A stretch of 34,695 bases of DNA from an uncultured bacterium (GTDB taxonomy: Bacteria > Cyanobacteriota > Vampirovibrionia > Gastranaerophilales > Gastranaerophilaceae), in the NCBI GenBank assembly GCA_902796925.1, contig CADBQW010000023.1:1-34695 (forward strand). Direction: 5' to 3'. The notes under the pieces were generated by a model. The model worked only from the letters and a program-made list of their open reading frames with translations, did no database searches and was not told the origin of the DNA. Shown one piece after another: positions 15,813 to 22,857 of this stretch. Made by a program: the position numbers and the translations under genes. Every line of letters starts with the position of its first letter. Positions within the stretch are counted from its first letter, which is position 1.

Positions 15813-16286
15813 ATGAATTTTTCAGTACAAAATGTTAGTTATTGTTCTTCTAGAGTAAATAGACAAGGAAACTATATTAATTTTCAAGGAGGGAGTGTAG
15901 AAGAAGTTAACAAACTGCTTGTTGCAGCAAAGGGACTCTCTAATGAAAAATTTGCTGAAAAAGTTTCTTTTATAAATAATTCAATTAATAAGAATTTATC
16001 ATCAAATGAACTTAAGTTAAAATTTAAAGATATTAAAAACTCTTTTGAAGCAGCAGTTGAACAGTGGAATAGAGCCTTCAAAAAACTAAATATGATTAAA
16101 AATGGCCGAGCTCATGATAAATATGAAAGAGAAAACACAAGCCGTTTTATTTATGGAAAAAATCATTATTACGATGCCCAAAAAGCCGAGTATCAATACG
16201 AACAGAGAGCAAAACTTGAAAAAAATCAGGCTGAAGAATTAATAGATTATTTAGCAGATCTTATAAATAAAACAAAAAATCAGTAA
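15813..16286 (+). CDS. Unknown protein with N-terminal INFQG segment, 157 aa
   Basis: This is a 157-residue protein. Its polar, Ser/Asn-rich, non-hydrophobic N-terminus contains YINFQGG (about 21-27), and a long charged helical region (about 30-155) with coiled-coil character follows. No signal peptide or known domain is seen. A comparable leader with VNFGD occurs in the protein at 17599. TAAAGG precedes the ATG by 4 bases. A perfect 12-bp stem-loop (16308-16338) lies just after the stop. It is monocistronic; the function is unknown. Confidence 0.65.
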   Translation: MNFSVQNVSYCSSRVNRQGNYINFQGGSVEEVNKLLVAAKGLSNEKFAEKVSFINNSINKNLSSNELKLKFKDIKNSFEAAVEQWNRAFKKLNMIKNGRAHDKYERENTSRFIYGKNHYYDAQKAEYQYEQRAKLEKNQAEELIDYLADLINKTKNQ

Positions 16287-16394: not shown

Positions 16395-16516
16395 TATATA
16401 CAAGAAAACATTAGATACACGAGATATTAAGAGAGACGTTTAAACAAGAGAGAGCAAATTTCTATTCCTACTATTTTTCCCTAAGAAGATTTCCCCTAAT
16501 TTAGGGGATTTTTTTT
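16395..16516 (+). ncRNA. Candidate small RNA ending in a strong terminator
   Basis: A second plus-strand terminator lies at 16493-16516: stem CCCCTAA/TTAGGGG, then A and eight T. It is separated from the previous gene by its own stem-loop. The intervening segment has a -10-like TATATA (16395-16400), a hairpin TGTATATA/TATATACA (16382-16402), GA-rich tracts and a pyrimidine-rich tract, but no open frame. A short RNA of about 110 bases would explain the orphan terminator. It could instead be a backup terminator. The terminator overlaps the 3' end of the convergent TOPRIM gene. Confidence 0.35.
16493..16516 (+). terminator. Strong Rho-independent terminator
   Basis: CCCCTAA (16493-16499), a one-base loop and TTAGGGG (16501-16507) are followed by A and T8 (16509-16516). 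The stem lies partly inside the last codons of the minus-strand TOPRIM gene. On the plus strand it has no immediately preceding coding gene, which is the basis of the small-RNA proposal. Confidence 0.8.
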
Positions 16517-17503
16517 ATTATAAATTTCAGAAATCACGAGTTTTATTTCATCTGATAAGTCTGATTCCGTGAGATTTAGTTCATTTATTGCGGCAGCGAA
16601 TTCGGATTTTTTAAATTCGTGCATTCCGCGAGTTTTAAACAATTCCTCAAGTTTTTTGGACATAGGGATACTTTTAAGCATGATATCATCGTTTATTATG
16701 GAAATATTTTTCATTTCTGCATCAAGAGCCTTATTTATAAGTTTTGGAGGAAAAAGGTCCTCAAATTCACCGGATTCCAGAATGTGAACACTGTCTTGAG
16801 TTCGTAATTTCGGTTTAATTTGTTCAAGGTTGGAAGAAGCATCCTTGTCCAGGAGAACAAAAATAGGAATTTTAAGGGATTCTGCAAAACGGTAAAAATA
16901 TTTTACTACTTGATTTTTTCCTCCGGCAGAAATTACATAAATCCCTTTTTTGTTAAAATCAACTCCTAAAATTTTTGCAAATTTTGGCAGGAGAATTTCT
17001 TCCGTAATACCTTCCGCCAATATAACCTCTCTGATTGGGTATCTGAGGCTATACTTTTCTCTAAAATCCTCCGGTGAATCGTTTCTTTCAAGAGTTTTTA
17101 GCCAACGTAAGTTAAAAGGCAAGTCATCTTCTAGCAGGTTTATTATTGATGCATAGTTTATTTTATTTTTTAAAAGCAGATTGATATCGTCATTTATTTT
17201 AAAAGTTGAATTTTCATACTCATAAATTTTTTTATTAATTAAAAGGTTATTAGTCGGAGGGAATCCAAGATTTTCCAGTGATTTATTGATAATTTTTTCT
17301 ACAAAAAGTTTTAAAACATTAAAATCAATATTTTCAATTTCGTTTTTTTTAATAGAAGGGTTAATCAAATGGTTTGATATTATATCTTTAAAAACTCTTA
17401 AATATTTAATTTCCGGTTCTTTAAAACGAGTCAGTCTGTCGACCGAGATAACAATCTCGGATTTTGTCATATATTTAATTTTTATATCTTCGGTAAAATT
17501 CAA
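16496..17503 (-). CDS. Stand-alone TOPRIM protein related to OLD-family nucleases
   Basis: This is a 335-residue protein. An N-terminal helical region (about 1-155) precedes a TOPRIM domain: the catalytic-type glutamate E164 in ILAEGITEE, the VISAGGKNQVVKYF segment, and the D219-K-D221 metal pair in IFVLLDKDAS, then SGEFEDLFPP (about 244-253). These are features of OLD-family/COG3593 nuclease modules, but the ABC-type ATPase half is missing and no neighbouring ATPase replaces it. The best start is TTG at 17503, with AAAGGT 5 bases upstream; an ATG at 17470 lacks a ribosome site. A role in DNA metabolism or phage defence is inference only. Confidence 0.75.
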   Translation of the reverse strand: MNFTEDIKIKYMTKSEIVISVDRLTRFKEPEIKYLRVFKDIISNHLINPSIKKNEIENIDFNVLKLFVEKIINKSLENLGFPPTNNLLINKKIYEYENSTFKINDDINLLLKNKINYASIINLLEDDLPFNLRWLKTLERNDSPEDFREKYSLRYPIREVILAEGITEEILLPKFAKILGVDFNKKGIYVISAGGKNQVVKYFYRFAESLKIPIFVLLDKDASSNLEQIKPKLRTQDSVHILESGEFEDLFPPKLINKALDAEMKNISIINDDIMLKSIPMSKKLEELFKTRGMHEFKKSEFAAAINELNLTESDLSDEIKLVISEIYNKKNPLN

Positions 17504-17598
17504 AGTATGACCTTTTGTTACAAAAATTAGTAATTTTTTTACATTATAGCAAATTTTTATTCACTTTTGTTTTATTATAAATGTAGTGGAGTTGAATA

Positions 17599-18981
17599 GT
17601 GTATTCGGTAACATTAAATAACAAACCATATAATAATAGCACAATTGGCGCAACAAGGCTTGATTGTAAAGTGCCGGAAAAAGTCTCAGCATATAGCGTT
17701 GCCAATGATTTAGGGCATGCCGTTAATTTCGGGGACTCCTCTCAAACCACGAAGGTTCGAACAACTCTTGTGAACAAGGATGAGATTTCAAAATATAATG
17801 TTGTGCTTAATAATTGTGATAAATCAACAAAAAAACAAATGGATATTCTGCTAAAGAACGGTGTTCTGTTAAGCAATCGTTCAAATGATAAATCCACGGT
17901 CTTAGATAATTTATATCTGATTGCATCCGGCAAAAGGGCTGAAGGTTTGAATACAAAAGAAATTATTAAAAATACTGTGGAAGCTATTGCTAATCCATAT
18001 TCGATAACTCAGCAATTCGGAGATATTCCTAAGCAATATCAGTCTGCAGCTATAAATTTATTCCTTGATGGAAAACAAGCCAATTCCGGTTCTTTGAAAT
18101 CCGCGGAAGAAGAAATTAATATTGAACATTCCGGAACTTGTGTTGCAGCAAGTATTGAATTCAATTTGGCAAAGAATTATCCGGCAGAATTTGCAAGATT
18201 CGCCGCAGGGTTGAGTTCTCCAGAACTGGCTGTTAACAAAACCATTCAATTAAAAAATCTTACTGATAATGTATTGGATTCGGTGTGGTTGTTAAATGCA
18301 TTTGAAATCCCTTATGAAATGAAAGATTATGAAAATGCAGTATTAAAAATTGCACCTGACAAGAATGCAATTATGCGCGCGACAATTCAAACATCAAATA
18401 GGGATAAGGGCGAACGTTCTTCTTTAGACGTTTTGATGCAGTCAGCATTTATGAATGTAGGTTCCGAACAGTCTTATAATACTTTATCTGATAAGAGAAA
18501 AGGTAAATTCAATCAAAATGACAAAGGTTTAATAGAATTTGAGAAAACATTCACGGAATCAATTGTAGAAAATGAAAATAAAACATCTATTACATATCAA
18601 AAAGTTGATGAGAATTCTAAGTTAGTTGGCTACGAAACAGATTTTGAGACAATAAAAAAACAACTTGTTTCCGCTTTGGAATTGGGACATGATGTAATTA
18701 TAGGATATACGCAAACAGATGAAAATAACGTTATCATAAATGGTCATGAAATAACGATTACTGATGTAAAACTGGACAGAAACGGGAAAATGATTTTTAC
18801 ATGTAACGACACTGATGACGGATATTCAAAACCAATTGCCTATTCGGAAGATTATCTGATCCCAAAAATTCACCATGCTGCGCTTCCTCAGGAGGTACTC
18901 AGTGACAATAGGGGGATTCCGGAAAATTGGGTTGATGGTCTACGTTACTACCAGGATGTAAAGAAGAATAAGGTAGCATAA
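17599..18981 (+). CDS. Putative papain-order cysteine protease-like protein
   Basis: This 460-residue protein carries C181 in HSGTCVAAS, H383 in INGHEITITDV and N403/D404 in FTCNDTDDGY. That is the Cys-His-Asn/Asp order of papain-like peptidases and transglutaminases. The spacing of about 200 residues between Cys and His is long but acceptable. The first 50 residues are polar with a VNFGD segment and no Sec signal. The GTG start has TGGAG about 8 bases upstream. The 5'-nucleotidase starts one base after its stop, so the two are coupled. The enzyme assignment is inferred from motifs only; substrate and secretion route are unknown. Confidence 0.6.
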   Translation: MYSVTLNNKPYNNSTIGATRLDCKVPEKVSAYSVANDLGHAVNFGDSSQTTKVRTTLVNKDEISKYNVVLNNCDKSTKKQMDILLKNGVLLSNRSNDKSTVLDNLYLIASGKRAEGLNTKEIIKNTVEAIANPYSITQQFGDIPKQYQSAAINLFLDGKQANSGSLKSAEEEINIEHSGTCVAASIEFNLAKNYPAEFARFAAGLSSPELAVNKTIQLKNLTDNVLDSVWLLNAFEIPYEMKDYENAVLKIAPDKNAIMRATIQTSNRDKGERSSLDVLMQSAFMNVGSEQSYNTLSDKRKGKFNQNDKGLIEFEKTFTESIVENENKTSITYQKVDENSKLVGYETDFETIKKQLVSALELGHDVIIGYTQTDENNVIINGHEITITDVKLDRNGKMIFTCNDTDDGYSKPIAYSEDYLIPKIHHAALPQEVLSDNRGIPENWVDGLRYYQDVKKNKVA

Positions 18982-18982
18982 T

Positions 18983-20497
18983 ATGATAAATGCAATAAAT
19001 AATGTAAATCAAAATACTAAAAGTACTCCACAAAGGGTGAATACCAGTATTTTTTACATAAACGATGTCCATGGAAAGATGACAAACATGGAGAGAATTT
19101 ATACAGCTTCTCTTGATTTCGATACATTTACCCCTTCTGAGCAAACAGACAAGTTAAAACTTTCATCAGGGGATATTATTTTAGGTGAAGATTTAAAATC
19201 AAATAAAGTGGCAAATAAATTTCTTGATTGGTCCGGATTTATTGCGAATGCACTAGGCAATCACGAAATGGATGTTTCCCCGAAAAAGCTTGCAGAATTA
19301 CTGGAAAATGCAAAATATAAGATTCTTGCAGCAAATGTAAAAGTAGTGGATAAAAGTCCGTTAAAAGATAAAATTCAAAAATCAATGGTGTATGAGCAAA
19401 ACGGTAATAAGTATGGTATTATTGGAGTTGCGCCTTCCGATATGGCTGATAGAGTTAAGCTGAATGAATCAATGCGAGAACTATCTGTCGACAATATTGA
19501 CGATACAATAAAAGATATTCAAGCTGAAATTGATAAAATGAAAGCTCAAGGAATAAATAAAATTATATTACTTTCCCATAGCGGAGCAACCAATGATATA
19601 AAGATAGCACAAGAAACCGACGGTATTGATATAATTCACGGCGGACATACCCATAACCTTATAAAAGGTGTTGAGAAAGATAAGAACTTGTTATTCTCAA
19701 AAAGCGGTGAGCCGGTTGTTATAACTCAGGGTGGCAAGGATGGCGAAAATATAGGAATTCTTAATGTTGAGTGGGATGAAAATGGTATTATTACAAAAGT
19801 TCAAAATAATGTAATTGAGACGAGAAGTACCTACAATAGAACATTACCTATGAAGTATGCCGTAGAACAAATATTAGGTAAACCTGAAATTGTAGGTTCA
19901 ATATCAAAAGCAGAAAAACCACCTAAAAACAGATTGATTGAGCCTAATCCTCATGCAAATTTCATAGCTGATGCAATGAAAAATGAGTTAAATACGGATA
20001 TTGCACTTTTAAATGCTGCCAATATAAGAGGAAATTTTTCACAAGGGCCTGTAGATACCCGCTTGATGGCGGATATCACGCCATTTAAAAACATAATGGT
20101 CATAGCCGAAGTTTCGGAACCGGAACTTATAAATGCTATAAAGGTAGGAATATCTTCATTCAATAACGACGGCAATAAACCAGGACTGCTGTTGACTTCC
20201 GGACTAAATTATGTTGTTTCAAAAAAAGGTGAATTGAAGGAAATGCACTTTATTGATAAAGATGGTAATAAAATTCCTATAGATATTAATAACCCAAATC
20301 CAAACAAAACTTATAGGGTAGCAATGGATGATTTTTGCGCAACCGGCGGCGATAACTATTTTCCAAAAGATGAAAATCCAAAATTTATAAAACAACGGTT
20401 TGACTTTGATAAAGATTTTCTTACATGCGAATACTTAAAGAAAATTGGGAAACCAATTGAAATTAAGGGTGACGAAAGACTGATTGTTGAGGACTAA
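18983..20497 (+). CDS. 5'-nucleotidase/UshA-like metallophosphatase without signal peptide
   Basis: This is a 504-residue two-domain enzyme. The metallophosphoesterase domain has D28-x-H30 (INDVHGK), SGD (62-64), GNHEMD (N93/H94), H199 in LLSHSG and GGHTH (H222/H224), all metal ligands in order. The C-terminal nucleotide-specificity domain carries NAANIRGNFSQGP and DITPFKN. Family members usually hydrolyse nucleotides in the periplasm or at the surface. This one lacks a signal peptide and begins with a polar INNVNQNTKSTPQ leader. It starts one base after the cysteine-protease-like gene. It may be exported by another route or work inside the cell. Confidence 0.9.
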   Translation: MINAINNVNQNTKSTPQRVNTSIFYINDVHGKMTNMERIYTASLDFDTFTPSEQTDKLKLSSGDIILGEDLKSNKVANKFLDWSGFIANALGNHEMDVSPKKLAELLENAKYKILAANVKVVDKSPLKDKIQKSMVYEQNGNKYGIIGVAPSDMADRVKLNESMRELSVDNIDDTIKDIQAEIDKMKAQGINKIILLSHSGATNDIKIAQETDGIDIIHGGHTHNLIKGVEKDKNLLFSKSGEPVVITQGGKDGENIGILNVEWDENGIITKVQNNVIETRSTYNRTLPMKYAVEQILGKPEIVGSISKAEKPPKNRLIEPNPHANFIADAMKNELNTDIALLNAANIRGNFSQGPVDTRLMADITPFKNIMVIAEVSEPELINAIKVGISSFNNDGNKPGLLLTSGLNYVVSKKGELKEMHFIDKDGNKIPIDINNPNPNKTYRVAMDDFCATGGDNYFPKDENPKFIKQRFDFDKDFLTCEYLKKIGKPIEIKGDERLIVED

Positions 20498-21082
20498 TTA
20501 ATCTTTTCTTGCGTAAATTTTTATTTGCAAATTTATCAGCAAAATACGTTTATTTTTCATGTATGGAGCAATTTCTATCTTTGAAATTTCCAAAAAATGA
20601 GGATGTGCGTATAGGTCTCTCAAAAATTCCTTAAACTCTGAATATTTGGCAACCATTTCCATTGACACACGACAAACCTGATATGAACCCGGCATATTTT
20701 TTACAAAATTATCGTCTTCAGGATTATAATCATATTTGATTGAACGTGTCTTAACCTTGTATTTGCGGATACTTTCAAGAATTTCAGAAAATTCAAGACC
20801 TAAAGTAGCCTCTGTATCAAGTTGAGCTCCGTTCGAGCTAAAGAAAGCTTTATAAACATCATCAATTTCTTCTTCTTGTTTTTCTTGATTTTTTCTGAGG
20901 ACTTCAAGTTTTCGAGTTTCATCATTAAGTGTTGCTTGAGAGGATTTTATGTTTTTGTTCAAGCTGGAAATTCTTTGAACATTAGGATATATTTTAGTTC
21001 CTATAAGGATTGCACCCAGCAATCCCAGTCCGAGAATTATGTACATAACTACTAACTTTTTATGATCTTCTTTATTCATCAT
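20498..21082 (-). CDS. pilO: PilO-like inner-membrane alignment protein
   Basis: This is a 194-residue bitopic membrane protein. A short cytoplasmic tail and one helix (about 10-30) precede a coiled coil (about 38-75) and a ferredoxin-like periplasmic domain (about 90-194). This is the architecture of PilO in type IV pili and GspM in secretion systems. It directly follows the PilM-PilN fusion gene (20 bases), completing a PilM/N/O alignment set. No PilP, PilQ, pilin or prepilin peptidase is in the window. Primary sequence is weakly conserved in this family, so context carries much of the call. Confidence 0.78.
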   Translation of the reverse strand: MMNKEDHKKLVVMYIILGLGLLGAILIGTKIYPNVQRISSLNKNIKSSQATLNDETRKLEVLRKNQEKQEEEIDDVYKAFFSSNGAQLDTEATLGLEFSEILESIRKYKVKTRSIKYDYNPEDDNFVKNMPGSYQVCRVSMEMVAKYSEFKEFLRDLYAHPHFLEISKIEIAPYMKNKRILLINLQIKIYARKD

Positions 21083-21102
21083 TTTTCCTTGGTTTAGTGT
21101 TT

Positions 21103-22857
21103 TTATTCCAATTCATCCTCAGGTATCGGCTCCATATTTGGGTTTTTTCCGCCGAATAAAGGGTTTTTATTTCTGTTTTTATTTTGATTAAGATTTTCCT
21201 GAGGCTGTTTTTGATTTACCCTGTCTGAAGTTTGAATACTGCTATTTTCATTTTTTTCAGAAGCAGATTCTTCTGTGTTGATAGGTGCTGACATGTTCGT
21301 TATCTCAAATATATAGTAGTTAGGATATTTATTTGTTGCTTCCACCAAATCTTCCAAATTAACAGGTTCCATCTCCAATTTTTGCAATCTTAAATCAGAA
21401 TTTATCATAGAATCCTTGAGGTTAGTGAAGAAAACATATATATCCTCAACACTTGAAGCTTTACCCTTTATATCTAATCCGCCGTTATCTGCGGTAACAA
21501 AATACGTAATCCACAAATTTTTAGGTACGGATTCCCCAAGGGCAGAATAAGCAATCAACTTGGTTCTATTTGAATCTAGAACACGTTTAATTTCGGTTTT
21601 AGCATCAAAACCCATTGCGGATGAAGTTTTACTTTCAATTTGTGAAATTTCATTCTCGACTGCTTGCACCTTAGATTGCACGTCTTGCAATTTATTATCA
21701 AGAGTTTTGGTATAATTTGTTACCATAAAATAAAAGGCGCCAAAAACAGATAATATAATCGCAACAAGAACAAAAGCGATAAAATTTGCTGTTGCCGGAG
21801 TAATCAAATACTCCTTATTTCCAATCATTAGTCGGATAGGAGAATTCGGATCTGTATCATCACTACTTCTATCCAAAATGTTAAATGAAAGATTTGTATT
21901 TACGGTCCTATTTAAAGCATTACCTATTGCATCTAAAGATATTTTCAATACATTATCTTGAATTACATCCAAACTCGTTTCAAGGAATTCTCTCTTTTTG
22001 TACTTGTTGTTCTCGATAAACTGAATTGTACCATCAACCGGCAACTTATTTGCCAATATTTCAGCGCTGACATCATCGGTATCAGAAATAATGTAAAGAT
22101 ATTTTGAAGGGTAACTCATCAAAGTTAATTGTGCAGAAGCACTTATAGCCTTGTAAATTTCTTCTCCGTCAAAAGACTTTACTGGAATAGCTTCTTCGTA
22201 ATATTCAATAAGATTTCTGCCTTTCATAGAACATATTGAGTATCCCAATCTGTTAATTATTAACAGATTCCAAGGTTCTTCTTTACTCATCTGTTCACTG
22301 GCAAAACCGGTAAAATCAAGCGCTCTTAATTTTGATACAAGTGACACTTCAATACTTAAAAGAGTTGCTCCAATTTCTCCAAGAGCTGTTCTAATATTAT
22401 CAACAACTTCCTGTTGAATAGCAGTATAGAATACGCGCCGCGCTTCTTGCATTGATGTATCACTATATTCAACCCATCCAACGACCGGATCGCTGCGTTT
22501 GAAAATGTACGATTGTTCAACTTCAGAAGTAATAATTGTTGACAAACCGTCACTTCCTACAATTATTGCAACATCTTTATAGCCGAATAAGACCGTCGGC
22601 AAATTTAAAACGATATTACATTTTGGATTAATATTTGCCTCTCTTAAAAGTTCCCTGACCGCATTCTTAAACTGTTCATAGTCCGCTATATCACGTGCGG
22701 TTTCGTTATATTCCAAAGGTCTACAAGAATAACTCTTAACAATCCGAGCATTCGTATCAAGTTTTATTAACTCTAAACCAACATCAGGTGTAACTGATAA
22801 ATATACCGTTTCTTTATTAGATGCGCCAAATGCGCCCAACAAATTACCTAAATCCAC
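21103..22857 (-). CDS. PilM-PilN fusion protein
   Basis: This is a 584-residue protein. Residues about 15-330 are PilM-like (actin-fold, with IVLNLP, FKRSDPVVGWVEY and LLIINRLGYSICSM strands). A membrane helix (about 356-380) then leads into a PilN-like region with a coiled coil (about 383-412) and a ferredoxin-like domain (about 430-530). The final 60 residues are a low-complexity Gln/Asn/Glu tail. Separate PilM and PilN proteins normally touch through the PilN N-terminal tail; here they are one chain, which fixes a 1:1 ratio. The start is GTG with AGGAAG upstream. PilO follows, and the divergent nadA shares its promoter region. Confidence 0.82.
   Translation of the reverse strand: MDLGNLLGAFGASNKETVYLSVTPDVGLELIKLDTNARIVKSYSCRPLEYNETARDIADYEQFKNAVRELLREANINPKCNIVLNLPTVLFGYKDVAIIVGSDGLSTIITSEVEQSYIFKRSDPVVGWVEYSDTSMQEARRVFYTAIQQEVVDNIRTALGEIGATLLSIEVSLVSKLRALDFTGFASEQMSKEEPWNLLIINRLGYSICSMKGRNLIEYYEEAIPVKSFDGEEIYKAISASAQLTLMSYPSKYLYIISDTDDVSAEILANKLPVDGTIQFIENNKYKKREFLETSLDVIQDNVLKISLDAIGNALNRTVNTNLSFNILDRSSDDTDPNSPIRLMIGNKEYLITPATANFIAFVLVAIILSVFGAFYFMVTNYTKTLDNKLQDVQSKVQAVENEISQIESKTSSAMGFDAKTEIKRVLDSNRTKLIAYSALGESVPKNLWITYFVTADNGGLDIKGKASSVEDIYVFFTNLKDSMINSDLRLQKLEMEPVNLEDLVEATNKYPNYYIFEITNMSAPINTEESASEKNENSSIQTSDRVNQKQPQENLNQNKNRNKNPLFGGKNPNMEPIPEDELE

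What the first reader, a model, noticed from the sequence alone, without database searches (positions are those of the whole stretch)
17599..20497. Coupled cysteine-protease-like and 5'-nucleotidase-like proteins, both without Sec signals
The two genes are 1 base apart. The first has Cys181-His383-Asn403/Asp404 in papain order. The second is a complete UshA-type enzyme, a family that is normally exported. Both start with polar, Asn/Ser/Thr-rich leaders. They may be released by a non-Sec route or act together inside the cell, for example on host or predatory targets.
Basis: partly seen in the sequence, partly recalled or inferred. Interest (0 to 1): 0.65.

Follow-up and report, generated by a model that had tools for sequence, protein, structure and literature searches.

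The report
Gut cyanobacterial papain-like enzyme plus nucleotidase
Two back-to-back genes of a non-photosynthetic gut cyanobacterium encode a previously unnamed papain-like cysteine enzyme, carried by nearly every member of its order, and an AMP-type nucleotidase; neither has the usual export signal, so how and where they act is open and testable.

Summary
The genes are 1 base apart, and in-frame stops just upstream of both starts rule out a missed signal peptide. Named relatives place the genome in Candidatus Gastranaerophilales (Melainabacteria/Vampirovibrionia).

Protein 1 has no Pfam, NCBIfam or PDB sequence match. It is a core gene of the order (86/88 good genomes), with relatives at 19-33% identity elsewhere in the class. 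C181, H383, Q138 and H426 are invariant, and D404 is at least 90% conserved (else mostly Asn). N403 varies, so the triad is C181-H383-D404. AlphaFold models (pLDDT 88 and 96) match papain-clan (CA) proteases before anything else. I call it a new family of papain-like cysteine hydrolases.

Protein 2 is a complete UshA-type 5'-nucleotidase, also order-wide; no copy examined has a hydrophobic N-terminal segment. The pairing is clade-limited: 53/74 genomes of one family, 0/19 in the other six. The deeply conserved neighbour of protein 1 is instead an OLD-like TOPRIM gene (84/93).

Export is unproven. A second, flagellin-independent FlhA (type III gate) is present across the order and is a candidate route, but no FlhB was found in this assembly. 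Predatory or host targeting has no support.

The parts
17599..18981 (+). Gene 1: 460-aa papain-like cysteine hydrolase of a new family
17599..17748 (+). Gene 1 leader, residues 1-50: polar, disordered, no Sec signal
   Evidence: pLDDT below 50; no hydrophobic segment; upstream stops
18010..18012 (+). Q138, proposed oxyanion-hole Gln (inferred)
   Evidence: invariant in 87 sequences; remote relatives have Gln 8 residues before the Cys in nearly all
18139..18141 (+). C181, proposed nucleophile, first residue of a helix
   Evidence: invariant; helix 181-193 in model
18745..18747 (+). H383, proposed catalytic His in GHE motif
   Evidence: invariant in 87 sequences
18808..18810 (+). D404, proposed third triad residue
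   Evidence: at least 90% conserved, Asn in most exceptions seen
18871..18876 (+). H425-H426, conserved pair of unknown role (H426 invariant)
18983..20497 (+). Gene 2: 504-aa UshA-type 5'-nucleotidase without signal peptide
18983..19045 (+). Gene 2 leader, residues 1-21: polar, no Sec signal
16496..17503 (-). Divergent neighbour: stand-alone OLD-like TOPRIM protein, the most conserved neighbour of gene 1
   Evidence: PF20469 E 3e-17; in 96/98 genomes; directly upstream and divergent in 126/151 loci
17504..17598 (.). 95-bp shared intergenic region; GGAG at 17588-17591 upstream of the GTG start

Best explanation
Gene 1 encodes a new family of papain-like (clan CA) cysteine hydrolases, most likely a peptidase or amidase: a disordered ~50-residue leader, a helical N-terminal part (residues 60-131) and a catalytic domain in which C181 attacks the substrate, H383 and D404 activate it, and Q138 probably steadies the oxyanion. 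It is a core enzyme of Gastranaerophilales and some related families. In one clade it became the first gene of a two-gene operon with a UshA-type 5'-nucleotidase. Both proteins lack Sec signals as a conserved trait. Because an active UshA-type enzyme in the cytosol would attack the cell's own nucleotides, the polar leaders most likely serve as non-Sec targeting tags, and the two hydrolases work outside the cytoplasm on peptides and nucleotides (scavenging or envelope turnover). Shown: gene structure, conservation, predicted fold, lack of signal peptides, clade-limited pairing. Inferred: catalysis, substrate, export and route.
For: Invariant C181/H383/Q138/H426 and D404 at 90% or more down to 19% identity. 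Confident models whose top PDB matches are papain-clan proteases (best E 7.5e-4, probability 1.00). Sub-threshold Pfam matches led by Peptidase_C39_2 in 16 of 87 members. Remote relatives carry Cys, GHx[VI] and [ND]-P motifs. Order-wide presence. No Sec signal in any homologue examined and no missed start. Both families share leader make-up and a short Phe motif above shuffles.
Against: Foldseek TM-scores are low (0.2-0.4) and no Pfam match passes its cut-off. No coordinates were available to measure the triad. No activity or localisation data. The Phe motif is absent from the window's own nucleotidase, and shuffles do not correct for relatedness. Export is inference.
Confidence: 0.55

Rival explanations
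1. Both enzymes are cytosolic. Protein 1 is an intracellular peptidase or maturase co-regulated with the divergent TOPRIM protein, and the nucleotidase salvages nucleotides or NAD inside the cell. The leaders have no targeting value.
For: No export signal of a recognised kind; the deepest conserved neighbour is a TOPRIM protein without a leader.
Against: Conserved polar, disordered leaders with a motif above shuffles; UshA-type enzymes are normally exported (established knowledge).
Confidence: 0.3
2. The two proteins are cargo of a second, flagellum-derived type III export apparatus that persists in flagellin-less members of the order.
For: FlhA in 98/98 genomes, flagellin in 34/98; two FlhA types split by a fully supported branch; FlhB, sigma factor and hook-like genes within about 4 kb of gene 1 in a clade of relatives; leader layout recalls split early-subunit signals (PMC8983047).
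Against: The gene-order link is confined to one clade; FlhA type 2 also occurs in families without gene 1; no FlhB match in the window's own assembly.
Confidence: 0.2
3. The adjacency of the two genes is incidental: they form an operon in one clade without working together.
For: Paired in 53/74 genomes of one family and 0/19 of the others, although both genes exist in almost all; most genomes have a second nucleotidase copy elsewhere.
Against: The tandem arrangement persisted in 74 of 151 partly redundant loci, through proteins down to about 50-60% identity.
Confidence: 0.4
4. Protein 1 is not a protease but another papain-fold enzyme (transferase, deamidase or amidase).
For: Fold and triad are shared by such enzymes; sub-threshold BtrH_N and Amidase_6 matches.
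Against: Peptidases dominate the PDB matches; C39-type peptidase leads the weak Pfam matches.
Confidence: 0.3

Closest known systems
Clan CA papain-like proteases of known structure: Parabacteroides distasonis dipeptidyl aminopeptidase (5wdk, 3pw3, 6w4n), streptopain, interpain A, staphopain
   Same: Predicted fold, Cys at the start of a helix, Cys-His-Asp/Asn order
   Different: About 10% identity and TM-scores of 0.2-0.4; no Sec signal; long insertion between Q138 and C181; extra conserved H425-H426
Pfam Peptidase_C39_2 (PF13529), with Peptidase_C39 and C70 for the remote relatives
   Same: Weak matches; GHx[VI] then N/D motif
   Different: All below Pfam's curated cut-offs; not attached to ABC transporters in what was examined
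UshA / 5'-nucleotidase family (PF00149 + PF02872), e.g. Thermus 2z1a
   Same: Both domains, metal ligands and catalytic His-Asp
   Different: No signal peptide in any copy examined; below every NCBIfam equivalog cut-off, so substrate unassigned

Membership tests
Papain-like clan CA cysteine hydrolase (protein 1) | Cys, His, Asn/Asp in that order, conserved | tested here: met
   C181 and H383 invariant, D404 at least 90%
Papain-like clan CA cysteine hydrolase (protein 1) | Papain-like fold | tested here: met
   Top PDB matches are papain-clan; distant, TM 0.2-0.4
Papain-like clan CA cysteine hydrolase (protein 1) | Triad residues close in space | not testable with these tools
   No coordinates returned; only secondary structure is compatible
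Papain-like clan CA cysteine hydrolase (protein 1) | Hydrolase activity | not testable with these tools
   Needs enzyme assay
Any existing Pfam or NCBIfam peptidase family (protein 1) | Score above the curated cut-off | tested here: not met
   No match for the window protein; only sub-threshold matches in homologues
UshA-type 5'-nucleotidase (protein 2) | Metallophosphoesterase plus C-terminal nucleotidase domain with metal and catalytic residues | tested here: met
UshA-type 5'-nucleotidase (protein 2) | N-terminal Sec signal peptide (usual in the family) | tested here: not met
Type III export substrate (both) | Leader-dependent secretion through FlhA/FlhB | not testable with these tools
   Only circumstantial; no FlhB match in this assembly

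The most novel reading that the evidence does not exclude
Gut cyanobacteria without flagella keep a second, flagellum-derived type III export machine, and the papain-like enzyme and the leaderless nucleotidase are among its cargo, carried by a polar N-terminal tag that often ends in a short Phe motif. That would be an undescribed secretion route for hydrolases in an order common in animal guts.
Probability: 0.2. Interest if true: 0.85.

Novelty: new variant of a known kind. Interest (0 to 1): 0.55.

Why it matters
A core protein of a whole order of animal-gut cyanobacteria had no family match or proposed function; it now has a predicted fold, a triad and residues to mutate. Both it and a normally exported type of nucleotidase lack signal peptides throughout the order, which raises a directly testable question about an undescribed export or targeting route.

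Tried and rejected
Missed upstream start with a Sec signal: excluded by in-frame stops. N403 as catalytic residue: rejected, not conserved. Transglutaminase fold: not among the listed top fold matches. Viral origin: no relative in viral contigs. A genome-wide N-terminal motif class: not enriched over shuffles in all genes, only in polar N-termini (5 against 0.8 expected), so kept as a lead. Type III linkage by gene order: looked strong at first but is confined to one clade. Co-occurrence of gene 1 with FlhA outside the order (18/18 against 24/76, p 4e-8, counts) is not corrected for relatedness, and FlhA type 2 also occurs in families without gene 1. PDB profile searches by sequence gave only chance-level hits. 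The first genome-contig scan with the single sequence found nothing; the alignment found 305 relatives. No paper found in the searched library describes this protein or a second export apparatus here; Soo et al. 2014 (PMC4040986) read the leftover genes as an incomplete flagellum.

Full report
IDENTITY OF THE GENOME. The window is contig 23 of a 1.57-Mb, 123-contig genome. Named relatives of gene 1 are mostly labelled Candidatus Gastranaerophilales, Melainabacteria or uncultured gut bacteria, so this is a non-photosynthetic gut cyanobacterium.

CHECK OF THE OBSERVATION. Both ORFs are present with one base between them. Upstream in-frame stops rule out a hidden signal peptide. None of 138 homologues of protein 1 and none of 76 of protein 2 has a hydrophobic N-terminal stretch, against 105 of 360 genes sampled from a related genome. 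The lack of Sec signals is therefore a conserved property, not an annotation slip.

WHAT PROTEIN 1 IS. It has no match in Pfam, NCBIfam or PDB by sequence. It is a core protein: 125/126 good genomes of the family and 86/88 of the order. It also occurs in three further families of the class. Very remote relatives, often several per genome and one with a LysM domain, occur elsewhere in the phylum. In 87 aligned sequences Q138, C181, Y293, G310, H383 and H426 are invariant and D404 is at least 90% conserved; in the exceptions seen it is Asn. N403 is free to vary. AlphaFold gives a confident model for most of residues 51-460 and a disordered leader 1-50. C181 starts a helix, H383 lies in strand 378-392, and D404 follows strand 398-403; this order is compatible with papain, but distances could not be measured. 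Foldseek against PDB returns papain-clan proteases at the top for the full model and more clearly for the catalytic domain alone (pLDDT 95.7; best E 7.5e-4, probability 1.00). TM-scores are low, so the relation is distant. Sub-threshold Pfam matches are led by Peptidase_C39_2. In most remote relatives examined the motifs read [IV]-[NS]-Q-x5-[TS]-C and GH-x-[VI] followed by [ND]-P. I take protein 1 to represent a new family of papain-like cysteine hydrolases; activity is not shown.

WHAT PROTEIN 2 IS. A complete UshA-type 5'-nucleotidase with invariant metal and catalytic residues. Its family is in 97/98 genomes of the order, usually in two copies, at most one of them beside gene 1 in nearly all. 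It scores below all NCBIfam equivalogs, so its substrate is open.

GENE CONTEXT. Tallied by eye from coordinates: the nucleotidase adjoins gene 1 in 53 of the 93 genomes that have gene 1, all in the window's family (53/74) and none in the other six (0/19). In the same-genus genome G001 one other gene lies between them. An OLD-like TOPRIM gene adjoins gene 1, mostly divergently, in 84 of 93 (68/74 and 16/19). In 151 partly redundant loci the TOPRIM gene is directly upstream and divergent in 126, and the nucleotidase directly downstream in 74.

LEADERS AND ROUTE. Leaders of both families are rich in polar residues and often carry a hydrophobic-[S/T/N]-F-x-[G/A/S] motif beyond composition-preserving shuffles (34/86 against 3.1; 21/86 against 1.7 with K also allowed before F). 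Shuffles do not correct for relatedness, and the window's own nucleotidase lacks the motif. Looking for a route, I found FlhA in 98/98 genomes of the order but flagellin in only 34/98. There are two FlhA types, split by a long, fully supported branch: by scores, one closely tracks flagellin and the other is kept across the order. FliE, FliF, FliH and FlhA of the second type are encoded together in the window's genome, but no FlhB match was found in this assembly. In a clade of relatives FlhB and a sigma factor lie downstream of the pair, and in some of them FlgE/FlgD-or-FliK/FliJ-like genes upstream, all within about 4 kb of gene 1. The leader layout recalls the split export signals of early flagellar subunits (PMC8983047). 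These facts make type III export a fair hypothesis, not a result.

VERDICT. The surprising parts are an unnamed papain-like core enzyme and order-wide leaderless nucleotidases. Host or predatory targeting is speculation without support here.

Noticed in passing
Outside the window: G000:C52:21487-23460 (L244:13409-15505) and 98 genomes of the order: A second, deeply diverged FlhA type is kept across the order, including genomes with no flagellin match; in the window's genome it sits with FliE, FliF and FliH.
   Followed up: partly
G000 whole genome; window 20498-22857: No FlhB (PF01312) match in this assembly, although close relatives encode it just past the nucleotidase; here PilN/PilO-like genes follow instead.
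   Followed up: partly
L250:6224-7702, L251:5539-7020, L263:5040-6515: Proteins of about 490 aa matching only the C-terminal half of FlhA (PF00771 positions ~309-655) occur in many genomes of the order.
   Followed up: no
window 16496-17503 (-): Stand-alone OLD-like TOPRIM protein, present in 96/98 genomes and usually divergent from gene 1; function unknown.
   Followed up: partly
window 15813-16286 (+): 157-aa orphan with a polar leader ending in NYINFQGG, like the Phe motif seen in other leaders.
   Followed up: no
L289-L301 (other classes of the phylum): Remote papain-like relatives, often several per genome, some in proteins of 700-860 aa and one with LysM, also without evident Sec signals.
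   Followed up: partly
L274:2548-5418 (G115): Two nucleotidase copies in tandem fused in one long open frame.
   Followed up: no
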